Shown here: positions 2,692 to 5,157 of the stretch, piece by piece
How the letters are laid out: each line of letters starts with the position of its first letter
How positions within the stretch are numbered: position 1 is the first letter of the stretch
NCBI RefSeq assembly: GCF_012222305.1
Contig: NZ_CP035730.1
Coordinates: 2,197,501 to 2,261,500 of the forward strand
Source of the DNA: Sulfolobus sp. S-194
GTDB lineage: Archaea > Thermoproteota > Thermoprotei_A > Sulfolobales > Sulfolobaceae
DNA: 64,000 nucleotides
Direction of reading: 5' to 3'
The notes under the pieces: generated by a model
What the model saw: only the letters and a program-made list of their open reading frames with translations
Told to the model about the DNA's origin: nothing
Database searches by the model: none
Translations under genes and position numbers: made by a program

Positions 2692-3557
2692 CCTTTTTCT
2701 GGATACAATACGTTTCCTCTATATCTGATAAACCATGGATTTACTATTTAATGATAAATTTATTTATACATGTTAAATATTCTAATTAACAAATATTTTT
2801 ATTAATAAATAATAGAATTTAAATTTAATTACAATATTTATTAACTTATGGACAAATTATACTTTTTATGGCGCGAAAGAAACAATAAACCATTGTTCTA
2901 CTATTTGACTTTTAAAAAAACTTATGGTAAAGTGTTGGAGTGTGGACTACAATTTCATATATTTGAAATTTATTCAAAATTACCTTAAATTATTCTTCCT
3001 TTGAGCACTTTTATTATACAATAAAAGTTCAGATAGGGATTAAAATCATAATATCCTTAAATTATCTACAAACAGAACTAATCATGAACTGAAACTAAAT
3101 TTATACTTTATATAATCTATACTCAATAAACAAAATTGTAATCCACACTCTATAAAGAGTTTTTAAAATTTAAATACCTAGATATATCAATGTGCTACAT
3201 TCTCATTTTCTTATGATAATAAATATCCCTATCGCCATAGATACAATAAAAACTACAATAGTTAGTGCAAGATTTATGGGGAAACTGCTTTATACGTATT
3301 GTACCTAATGAAAGAACAGTTGAGGATTTAGTAATAATGATTTATGAAGTAGTTATGACTAAAGTACTCGTTATCGTGAAAATAACCTCTAGTCTTATTT
3401 TGCTAACTGTGCCTTTACATCTCCATAACCTCGGAATTATAATTGAATATCCTACTTTTCCGCAGAATACACATAGAATCCCTAGTATATAGTGCTTTAG
3501 TAATACGACGTGCATATCTAAGTAAAACTATTTATTTTCTCTTTACTAATTTTTTAG
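2692..3557. other. Long A+T-rich intergenic region
   Basis: This 0.87-kb stretch contains the imperfect inverted-repeat element at 2938-3150. It also contains an open frame at 3265-3492 (75 codons, plus strand) whose translation shows no family signature and no convincing ribosome site; I do not call it a gene. The rest shows no coding character. Confidence 0.4.
2938..3150. mobile_element. Possible MITE with 18-bp imperfect terminal repeats
   Basis: Arms GAGTGTGGACTACAATTT (2938-2955) and AAATTGTAATCCACACTC (3133-3150) are inverted copies with 17 of 18 matches. They enclose a 213-bp A+T-rich segment with no gene. The size and architecture suit a non-autonomous transposon, but I see no clean target-site duplication; flanking AAAGTG/AAAGAG is at best imperfect. 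A decayed element or a large regulatory hairpin are alternatives. Confidence 0.45.
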
Positions 3558-3692
3558 TTGATATTTTCTATTGATTTTACAGCTATTAGTTATCTTGGCT
3601 TAACGGGTCTTATTATAAACATAATTGTAGCGGGCCTAACTTTCATGTTTTATAACGTGATGGGACCTAAGCACAAAAGGAAATATTCATAG
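3558..3692 (+). CDS. Possible 44-residue single-span membrane protein
   Basis: A TTG-started frame encodes one strong hydrophobic helix (about residues 13-33) followed by a basic tail (GPKHKRKYS), consistent with the positive-inside rule. It ends 5 nt before the next small membrane ORF, so the two may form an operon. There is no recognised family, and a short hydrophobic frame in A+T-rich DNA could also be chance or the tail of a decayed permease. Confidence 0.35.
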   Translation: MIFSIDFTAISYLGLTGLIINIIVAGLTFMFYNVMGPKHKRKYS

Positions 3693-3697
3693 TTGGT

Positions 3698-3940
3698 ATG
3701 GTACAGATGGTTGCATATGACGGGGAAAGTACATTAGGAATTTATGTTTATCATTACGGTCTTAGGAAAGAAGTACCTTCTCGTATATTGGTATGTTTTG
3801 CTATTGAGTCGGCTTTAATATTCATAGTCTTAGGTTTATACATAGCCGGAAGAATATTATCGTCTACCATTAGAAAAAGGACTTTAGGATTAATAATCTC
3901 AATTCTTTGGATTCCGTTAACAATACTTGGAATATTATAA
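3698..3940 (+). CDS. Possible 80-residue two-span membrane protein
   Basis: The frame has a hydrophilic N-terminus of about 30 residues and two hydrophobic helices (about 30-52 and 62-79) separated by the basic loop SSTIRKRT. It lies directly after another small membrane ORF on the same strand. No family recognised. An opposite-strand frame over the same bases looks like a shadow. Moderate-to-low support. Confidence 0.4.
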   Translation: MVQMVAYDGESTLGIYVYHYGLRKEVPSRILVCFAIESALIFIVLGLYIAGRILSSTIRKRTLGLIISILWIPLTILGIL

Positions 3941-4027
3941 GGCTGTACAAGGTGCAAGAATACCAGATTACTTGTTCATAGAAACGAGGATTCTGAGATA
4001 TTTTGTTTAAATTTCAATAAACCTTAA

Positions 4028-4035
4028 AGGCTAAG
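4028..4035. repeat. Left 8-bp target-site duplication (AGGCTAAG)
   Basis: AGGCTAAG abuts the left end of the element at 4036 and is repeated exactly at 4165-4172 directly after its right end. That is the footprint of a transposition event. Confidence 0.75.
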
Positions 4036-4164
4036 GATAGTGTCGTCATTTGTATATAATTTCATTAATTGAGGCTAATCTCTATCAAGAGAAGATACTA
4101 AGATAAAGCTATTGTACGCCTTATTTTAATATAGAAATATAAATAGCTTAATGACGACACTATC
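4036..4164. mobile_element. MITE-like element, 129 bp, perfect ends
   Basis: The segment starts GATAGTGTCGTCATT and ends AATGACGACACTATC, perfect 15-bp terminal inverted repeats. It is flanked by a perfect 8-bp direct repeat AGGCTAAG on both sides. It encodes nothing and would need a transposase supplied elsewhere. Sulfolobus MITEs of similar size (SM3-type, about 130 bp, tied to IS5-family elements) are known, but I have not compared sequences. The clean ends and duplication suggest a fairly recent insertion. Confidence 0.75.
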
Positions 4165-4172
4165 AGGCTAAG
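4165..4172. repeat. Right 8-bp target-site duplication (AGGCTAAG)
   Basis: Exact direct copy of the left flank at 4028-4035, immediately after the right inverted repeat of the MITE-like element. Confidence 0.75.
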
Positions 4173-4399
4173 CAAAATTGGCGATCCAGGATTTCACTAT
4201 GCATCCATTCTATTTTGTCACTATGCGATTATATATTTAATAATCGTGGAAAGGGGTTTAACTACAAACTAAATCGCATAATGATATACAATTAATTATT
4301 TCTTCGTGGAATTAGCTAAGAGAATATCGCAATTAGCAATGAACGCTTAAATGACCCATAAAAGGGGAGTAAAAACTACATCGACGTAGACAAGCGAAG
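4173..4399. other. Intergenic with imperfect inverted repeat
   Basis: No gene is seen. TCACTATGCGATT (4218-4230) and AATCGCATAATGA (4272-4284) are inverted copies with one mismatch around a 41-base loop. TCACTATGC also occurs once more at about 4193. Possibly a decayed small element; function unknown. Confidence 0.35.
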
Positions 4400-4410
4400 T
4401 TTTTATACTT
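4400..4410 (+). promoter_or_regulatory. TATA box for HEPN/MNT pair
   Basis: TTTTTATACTT lies about 27 nt before the ATG at 4432, the spacing expected for a leaderless archaeal transcript. Confidence 0.5.
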
Positions 4411-4431
4411 ATTTCCTTTTATATCAAATAG

Positions 4432-4846
4432 ATGGGATCATACGAAAAAGCATATTTACTTTGCAAGAGAGCATTAAGTTATTTAAAAGTTGCTAAAGAT
4501 ACGTTTCATGAAGGACTTTATGATGTTGCCGCAACAAACTGTCAAATTTCTGCTAAACTGATAATAAAGTCTACTTATCTATTTCTTGGATTTATATATC
4601 CTGAAACACATAATATTAGGAAGCTTTTTAAGTGAGTTGGCTAACTTAACTAAACTGGAGGAGATAAACAAGTTAGTTAAGGAAAAAAGAAGAGAACTTA
4701 ACTTAGTAGAGCTTAGCAGATTTGAAGGACAATACTCGTTCATTGATGTTGATTCAGAATTTACATCAGATTGTTTAGATACAGTAGAAAATAGCATATT
4801 ACCTCTAGTGAAGAAAATATGGGGGGATAAATGGTGTGGGGACTAG
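4432..4846 (+). pseudogene. HEPN-domain protein, frameshifted
   Basis: Residues 1-64 in one frame match the HEPN family pattern: an early helix with AKDTFHEGLYDVAATNCQ, a hydrophobic helix, then PETHNIRKL where the family has a conserved Thr-His-x-(hydrophobic)-x-x-Leu. The frame then hits TGA at 4633. Removing one T from the TTTTT run at 4625-4629 restores a continuous protein of about 137 residues ending at 4846 (KLLSELANLTKLEEI onward). The MNT gene overlaps its 3' end by 16 nt, the usual HEPN-MNT toxin-antitoxin arrangement. Either the toxin is inactivated, or the T run is a slippage site or a sequencing error. Confidence 0.7.
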
Positions 4847-5157
4847 ATTACATTAATTATCTAGAAAGTAACTGGAGAATGATTGCTGAAGAGGTTAAGT
4901 CAGTAGCTAAGAAGTTTGGTAAAGTTGATAAAGTAATAGTATTTGGATCAATGATCAAGGGAAAAGTAACCGGGAATAGTGATTTAGACATAGCAGTATT
5001 TTATAACGAAGAGTTAACAGATAAGGAGAAGATAAAGAGAGCTCTGGAAATACTTAATGAAGTAAATGAGGAAATAGCTGTGATAAATATTCAAGTGCTT
5101 ATGAAAAGTGAAGAGGATTTCTTTTTAAAGTTTATTGGAGATTACATCGAAATATAG
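4831..5157 (+). CDS. MNT-type minimal nucleotidyltransferase
   Basis: This 108-residue protein has the nucleotidyltransferase signature GSMIKGKVTGNSDLDIAV at about residues 39-56: a Gly-Ser pair followed by Asp-x-Asp metal ligands. MNT proteins pair with HEPN toxins and act as antitoxins, in characterised cases by adding AMP units to the HEPN protein. The gene overlaps the frameshifted HEPN gene by 16 nt and appears intact. If the HEPN frame is truly broken, this is an orphan antitoxin. Confidence 0.8.
   Translation: MVWGLDYINYLESNWRMIAEEVKSVAKKFGKVDKVIVFGSMIKGKVTGNSDLDIAVFYNEELTDKEKIKRALEILNEVNEEIAVINIQVLMKSEEDFFLKFIGDYIEI

What the first reader, a model, noticed from the sequence alone, without database searches (positions are those of the whole stretch)
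4028..4172. Intact MITE footprint: 129 bp, 15-bp perfect ends, 8-bp target duplication
Both terminal repeats and the flanking AGGCTAAG duplication are perfect, so the insertion is recent and its transposase family should be identifiable. It may be a new MITE family or a variant of an SM-type element.
Basis: partly seen in the sequence, partly recalled or inferred. Interest (0 to 1): 0.5.

Follow-up and report, generated by a model that had tools for sequence, protein, structure and literature searches.

The report
Archaeal mini-transposon from IS1-type element
A 129-base stretch of this archaeon's DNA is one of dozens of copies of a miniature jumping element that carries no gene of its own and was probably moved by an IS1-type transposase, and its relatives tend to land on the ends of a second kind of jumping element, in at least one case giving a hybrid that seems to jump as a unit.

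Summary
It is a real MITE: at least 41 scored copies in the same genome, 59 extracted, 13 with exact edge duplications against 0.25 expected, and a 93% sibling in another genus whose empty site survives in a third species. The guessed parent is wrong. IS5/ISC1058-like elements have unrelated ends. An apparent 1266-bp parent is a MITE copy split by an ISC1217-type insertion. The ends match a 750-800-bp IS1-family element (30-35 bp at 97-100%, 8-9-bp duplications), of which the window's genome yielded only broken copies. This IS1/MITE lineage favours the outer 8-9 bp of the inverted repeats of an ISC774-like IS6-type element and its 213-bp MITE (also in the window, 2938-3150). One nested product with identical internal junctions sits at two different sites in two species, each with its own perfect 8-bp duplication, so the hybrid itself probably moved. 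'Recent' is only partly supported.

The parts
4028..4035 (.). left copy of the 8-bp target-site duplication AGGCTAAG
   Evidence: exact direct repeat with 4165-4172
4036..4050 (+). left 15-bp terminal inverted repeat GATAGTGTCGTCATT
   Evidence: 100% complementary to 4150-4164; identical to the first 15 bp of IS1-family relatives such as L128, L129, L130
4051..4149 (.). non-coding interior, 99 bp; window-copy RNA fold z-score -5.26
   Evidence: no ORF of 80 aa or more; fold; no match of the inner core (positions 31-95) to the parents at blastn E<=1
4130..4164 (-). 35-bp end that matches the terminal sequence of the IS1-family parent (97% over 35 bp to L130; 100% over 30 bp to L129)
   Evidence: also (94% over 35 bp to the broken own-genome copy L051)
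4150..4164 (-). right 15-bp terminal inverted repeat
4165..4172 (.). right copy of the target-site duplication AGGCTAAG
2938..3150 (.). second MITE, 213 bp, IS6/ISC774-type ends (arms 2938-2963 / 3125-3150, 85% complementary, starting GAGTGTGGA); its family is the preferred target of the 129-bp family; both target sites are empty in this copy
   Evidence: sister copy L188 (98%) has a perfect 9-bp duplication TGTAAAAGT

Best explanation
The 129-bp segment is a non-autonomous MITE derived from, and mobilised in trans by, an IS1-family insertion sequence of about 750-800 bp (Zn-ribbon + HTH + IS1-type transposase) that is widespread in this family of archaea. The transposase would bind the shared terminal repeat (GATAGTGTCGTCATT plus about 15-20 subterminal bases at one end), and insertion into a staggered cut of 8-9 bp gives the AGGCTAAG duplication. 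Shown: the anatomy, the copy number, the end match to the IS1 element, equal duplication size, shared target preference, past mobility of a sibling copy. Inferred: that this transposase performs the reaction, and that the MITE arose by internal deletion and replacement. The same lineage prefers to insert at the outermost 8-9 bp (GAGTGTGGA) of the inverted repeats of an IS6/ISC774-type element and its 213-bp MITE. Nested products keep IS6-type ends, and at least one such chimera appears to have moved as a unit (inferred).
For: Anatomy. Copies: 41 scored in the own genome. 13 of 59 extracted copies with exact edge duplications versus 0.245 expected. Ends: 97% over 35 bp to L130 and 100% over 30 bp to L129. 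Parent protein of L127 (244 aa) scores 107.2 bits against NCBIfam transpos_IS1, cut-off 100. Of 18 parents with clear ends, 9 have exact 8-9-bp duplications. Shared target: 32 of 118 MITE flanks within 2 mismatches of GAGTGTGGA-like 9-mers versus 0.56 expected further out, and 8 of 18 parents have AGTGTGGA/TCCACACTC within 1 mismatch next to an end. Mobility: the 93% sibling L155 in another genus has TATGTTCC on both sides, and G014 shows the uninterrupted site with one TATGTTCC. Chimera: same two internal junctions in G000 and G030 at different sites, duplications CTTAATTT and GTTAACAT.
Against: Only one end matches the parent beyond the 15-bp repeat in the window copy; the other end and the core do not match the sampled parents clearly, so the interior may come from an unsampled parent. 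No intact copy of the parent was found in the own genome; those found are truncated or frame-broken, so present activity is doubtful. 46 of 59 copies lack an exact edge duplication. PF03400 scores just under its cut-off for the parent (22.9 against 24.1).
Confidence: 0.9

Rival explanations
1. One reading: a MITE of the IS5 family (ISC1058-like), i.e. a variant of an SM3-type element mobilised by an IS5 transposase.
For: Size and 8-9-bp duplication fit; the literature ties SM3A to ISC1058 (PMC3718332, passages seen).
Against: IS5-type elements of 1056-1057 bp with 9-bp duplications in G013 (6 of the 30 loci examined) end in TGCTTTGT, not GATAGTGT (the transposase of one, L231, identified as IS5 at 170 bits). 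None of the 20 DDE_Tnp_1 loci of the own genome has matching ends of its own.
Confidence: 0.03
2. A deletion derivative of an ISC1217-type IS, as the 1266-bp element at genome position 2780187-2781452 suggests (MITE ends at both sides of a DDE_Tnp_2 transposase).
For: The 1266-bp segment has both MITE ends and MITE sequence over 34 + 100 bp around a DDE_Tnp_2 (ISC1217) gene.
Against: Eight other ISC1217-type copies at 92-96% in the genome start at positions 26-41 of this segment, and seven of them end at 1166-1182 (the eighth stops at 1031); the two MITE pieces overlap by about 5 bp, as expected for the duplication made by an insertion into the MITE.
Confidence: 0.02
3. A functional hairpin RNA or regulatory repeat kept by selection, not a transposon.
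For: The RNA folds far better than shuffles (z -5.26); the terminal repeats are well kept across copies.
Against: The z-score follows from the inverted repeats themselves; exact duplications at 13 of 59 copies, an empty site for a sibling, and ends shared with an IS are transposon marks; no Rfam family in the window. Secondary uses as a terminator or small RNA are not excluded.
Confidence: 0.05

Closest known systems
IS1-family insertion sequence of Sulfolobaceae (796 bp in L127-L129; probably the type called ISC796, a name recalled and not tested)
   Same: 15-bp terminal repeat identical, one end 97-100% over 30-35 bp, 8-9-bp duplications, same preferred target GAGTGTGGA
   Different: The MITE has no gene; its core and the far end beyond 15 bp do not match the sampled IS
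SM1-SM4 MITEs of Sulfolobus solfataricus, SM3A of S. islandicus (PMC3718332, PMC10969869, passages)
   Same: Short non-coding elements with terminal repeats, dozens of copies, mobilised in trans
   Different: SM3A is ascribed to ISC1058 (IS5) and is given as 164 bp in PMC3718332; here the parent is IS1-family. No SM reference sequence was available, so sequence identity with any SM element is untested
ISC774-type IS6-family IS and its 213-bp MITE
   Same: Lives in the same genomes; source of the target sites
   Different: Ends GAGTGTGGACAACAATTT; a different transposase family (NF033588 transpos_ISC774, 195.7 bits, cut-off 200)
IS elements that target other mobile elements: IS1111 in QMITE2 of Coxiella (PMC10969869, passage); IS4321/IS5075 in the inverted repeats of Tn21-type transposons (recalled; search listing only)
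   Same: An IS that inserts at a set place in another mobile element
   Different: Those are IS1111/IS110-group enzymes with RNA-guided targeting (recalled); here a DDE IS1-type element and its MITE, with target duplications

Membership tests
MITE (non-autonomous DNA transposon) | short, no transposase gene, terminal inverted repeats | tested here: met
   129 bp, 15-bp perfect repeats, no ORF of 80 aa or more
MITE (non-autonomous DNA transposon) | target-site duplication at insertion | tested here: met
   AGGCTAAG here; 13 of 59 copies exact versus 0.245 expected
MITE (non-autonomous DNA transposon) | multiple dispersed copies and past mobility | tested here: met
   41 scored copies; empty site of sibling L155 in G014
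MITE of the IS1 family | ends shared with an autonomous IS1-family element | tested here: met
   97% over 35 bp (L130), 100% over 30 bp (L129); IS1 transposase in L127 above the NCBIfam cut-off. The left end matches over 15 bp only
MITE of the IS1 family | duplication of 8-9 bp as for the autonomous element | tested here: met
   9 of 18 parents with exact 8-9-bp duplications
MITE of the IS1 family | mobilisation by that transposase in vivo | not testable with these tools
   needs an experiment
IS5 / ISC1058-type MITE (including SM3A) | ends shared with an IS5-family IS of about 1058 bp | tested here: not met
   ends TGCTTTGT versus GATAGTGT; tested on IS5 elements of matching size in G013, not on the ISC1058 reference itself
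SM3A as a named element | sequence identity with the published SM3A | not testable with these tools
   no SM3A sequence on hand
ISC1217-derived MITE | ends shared with ISC1217-type elements | tested here: not met
   eight further full or nearly full copies lack the MITE ends

The most novel reading that the evidence does not exclude
An archaeal IS1-type element and its MITE preferentially insert into the outer ends of an IS6/ISC774-type element and its MITE. The nested products keep IS6-type ends around an IS1-type MITE and become new, chimeric mobile units: one chimera of about 310 bp with identical internal junctions is found in two species at different sites, each with its own perfect 8-bp duplication. 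MITE families could thus arise by nesting and capture, not only by deletion of a parent.
Probability: 0.6. Interest if true: 0.5.

Novelty: new member of a known kind. Interest (0 to 1): 0.35.

Why it matters
The 129-bp copy itself is an ordinary MITE, but the family assignment changes: here a MITE of SM-like size belongs to IS1, not IS5. The wider pattern matters more. Target choice at the ends of a second element family explains why many copies have no direct duplication but hotspot or inverted flanks, and it offers a concrete route by which one MITE captures another and makes a new mobile unit. That is testable with sequence alone in more genomes and with a transposition assay.

Tried and rejected
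IS5/ISC1058 parent: rejected. ISC1217 parent: first looked convincing, rejected because it is an insertion into a MITE copy. ISC1173-like elements (name recalled, from their length) found by PF03400 (L123, L125): an IS1-type transposase but ends GGGG(A/G)TGTTCTCA, so not the parent. Phage and plasmid records: no match; viral contigs: no exact match for two 26-mers; genome contigs: none for a 28-mer, two loci for a 26-mer, in Sulfolobales archaeon Acd1 and Metallosphaera yellowstonensis. Rfam: nothing in the window. Empty site of the window copy itself: the flanks 3516-3947 and 4388-4791 have relatives in congeners, but the stretch around the insertion does not align, so it stays untested. Not a full census: only part of the first-look candidates was scored in each genome search, and the 59 copies come from 55 loci chosen; three of them (L023, L115, L118) match over only part of the element, their far edges were extrapolated, and they were kept in the counts. 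The hotspot 9-mers were chosen after looking at the flanks, so the 32 versus 0.56 is descriptive; the independent check is the 213-bp search, where 8 of the 15 copies examined (out of 31 matches), found without reference to the MITE, have an IS1-type end flush against them (in two of the eight, L200 and L208, at the internal junction of the chimera). Organism name: not established; the IS name ISC796 is recalled. Papers: no text of Redder 2001, Brugger 2004, Blount and Grogan 2005 or Filee 2007 was read; 'ISC796' occurs in no paper of the library, and the searches listed no IS1-derived MITE of Sulfolobales, which is not proof that none is published.

Full report
Observation. The feature is exactly as described. 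At 4036-4050 and 4150-4164 lie 15-bp perfectly complementary arms, and AGGCTAAG stands directly outside both (4028-4035, 4165-4172). The window is part of a 2,789,526-bp single-contig genome, G000. A search of that genome with the 129 bp gave 41 matches of 82-100% identity, with only 40 of 117 candidates scored. The 15-mer with up to two mismatches occurs 57 + 52 times against 3 + 6 for the reversed control.

The family in its own genome. From 55 loci I extracted 59 copies (a selection, not a census; three match only in part and their edges were extrapolated). 46 of them fall in one cluster whose consensus is 128 bp; the window copy is 95% identical to it, and its nearest copy is 98% identical. 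Exactly at the edges, 13 of 59 have a perfect 8-9-bp direct repeat, against 0.245 expected if left and right flanks are paired at random. The RNA of the window copy folds much better than shuffles (z -5.26), as any sequence with such ends would.

False parent. A 1266-bp segment in the same genome has both MITE ends and a 349-aa DDE_Tnp_2 (ISC1217) gene. It is not the parent: the eight other ISC1217-type copies at 92-96% begin at positions 26-41 of that segment and, seven of them, end at 1166-1182 (one stops at 1031), and the two outer pieces are the two parts of a MITE overlapping by about 5 bp. It is a MITE copy with an ISC1217-type insertion inside.

IS5 tested. Of 20 DDE_Tnp_1 loci in G000, none has the MITE ends as its own terminal repeats (L043 is the nested case above). 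In a related genome, G013, six of the 30 loci examined (30 loci from five genomes were returned; all were scanned) delimit clean elements of 1056-1057 bp with 9-bp duplications and ends TGCTTTGT; the transposase of one, L231, is IS5 (170 bits, cut-off 140). These have the size expected of ISC1058 (read from the name), and their ends are unrelated to those of the MITE.

True parent. The MITE's right 35 bp match one end of an element of about 750-800 bp: 94% in the broken own-genome copy L051 (788 bp, frames of 84 and 149 aa), 97% over 35 bp in L130 and 100% over 30 bp in L129. The intact gene in L127 (796-bp element, 244 aa) scores 107.2 bits with NCBIfam transpos_IS1 (cut-off 100); Pfam shows the InsA zinc ribbon and an IS1 domain just below their cut-offs. 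22 of 31 family genomes have a match to this element at E <= 0.001, short end-only matches included. Of 18 copies with clear ends (of 29 loci tried), 9 have exact 8-9-bp duplications. In G000 the matches listed are truncated or broken. In the window copy the left end matches the parents at high identity only over the 15-bp repeat, and the core (positions 31-95) matched none of the 15 trimmed parents.

Mobility of a sibling. In G013, a genome of another genus, a copy 93% identical to the window's lies in an intergenic stretch, flanked by TATGTTCC on both sides. G014, of the same genus as G013, shows the uninterrupted site with a single TATGTTCC. G012 carries a 91% copy with a 9-bp duplication GGATAGAAT. 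For the window copy itself the test fails: flanking stretches have relatives in G029 and G030, but the DNA around the insertion does not align.

Target preference. Copies without direct repeats are often bordered by GAGTGTGGA-like 9-mers: 32 of 118 flanks within two mismatches of four such 9-mers, against 0.56 expected from positions further out (the motif was chosen after inspection). The IS1-type parents do the same: 8 of 18 have AGTGTGGA or TCCACACTC within one mismatch beside an end. This 9-mer is the outer end of another element family. The window holds one: 2938-3150, 213 bp, beginning GAGTGTGGACTACAATTT and ending AAATTGTAATCCACACTC; a 98% sister has a perfect 9-bp duplication TGTAAAAGT. 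Longer relatives of 834-877 bp with the same ends carry an open frame, and the frame beside L127 scores 195.7 bits (cut-off 200) against NCBIfam transpos_ISC774, IS6 family. Of 15 copies of the 213-bp type examined from the genus search, 8 have an IS1-type end flush against them (in L200 and L208 at an internal point, see next paragraph), and in one more (L194) the nesting is reversed, the 213-bp element sitting in an IS1-type end with duplication TGTCTTCA. Of the 59 MITE copies, 11 have IS6-type sequence within 80 bp.

Chimera. One nested product, IS6-type end (GAGTGTGGA-like) + IS1-type MITE + remaining 172 bp of the 213-bp element, occurs in G000 (315430-315729) and in G030 (1766772-1767071) with the same two internal junctions. 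Beyond the chimera the flanks do not align, and the outer duplications differ: CTTAATTT in G000, GTTAACAT in G030. The simplest reading is that the chimera moved as a unit through its IS6-type ends; two independent nestings with the same junctions are less likely. Two short nested forms, L058 and L028, also have exact duplications outside the end pieces (0.125 expected among 59).

Known versus new. MITEs in Sulfolobus are well known (SM1-SM4, SMN1; PMC3718332 and PMC10969869, passages seen). SM3A is ascribed there to ISC1058. Here the parent is IS1-type. I could not compare with SM or ISfinder sequences. IS elements that target other mobile elements are known from the IS1111/IS110 group (PMC10969869 passage on IS1111 in QMITE2; IS4321 recalled). 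I found no paper in this library describing the same for IS1-type archaeal elements (listings only), which is weak evidence of novelty.

Verdict. Observation confirmed; MITE confirmed; family reassigned to IS1; 'recent' partly supported. The copy is a new member of a known kind. The nesting and capture pattern is the part worth a specialist's time.

Noticed in passing
window 2938-3150: A second MITE, 213 bp, with ISC774/IS6-type ends; its family is the preferred target of the 129-bp family.
   Followed up: yes
window 4432-4632 and 4831-5157: A HEPN-domain frame cut short by a stop (PF05168, 52.1 bits) followed by an MntA-like nucleotidyltransferase (PF18765): a HEPN/MNT toxin-antitoxin-like pair with a broken HEPN gene, just downstream of the MITE.
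   Followed up: partly
window 4194-4340: Short direct (TCACTATGC at 4194 and 4218) and inverted repeats, and weak multi-copy matches in congeners for about 4227-4340: possibly a third small repeat.
   Followed up: no
L043 1188-2453 (genome 2780187-2781452): A MITE copy with an ISC1217-type IS inserted inside it; easily mistaken for the parent.
   Followed up: yes
flanks of L010, L017, L106 (left side) and L003, L018, L030 (right side): Several MITE copies abut a stretch ending TATATAGGA, in L017 and L030 preceded by a shared longer sequence; another element family, not identified.
   Followed up: no
L123 1341-2513 and L125 1341-2504: 1164-1173-bp elements with an IS1-type transposase but different ends (GGGG(A/G)TGTTCTCA), with 8- and 9-bp duplications.
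   Followed up: partly
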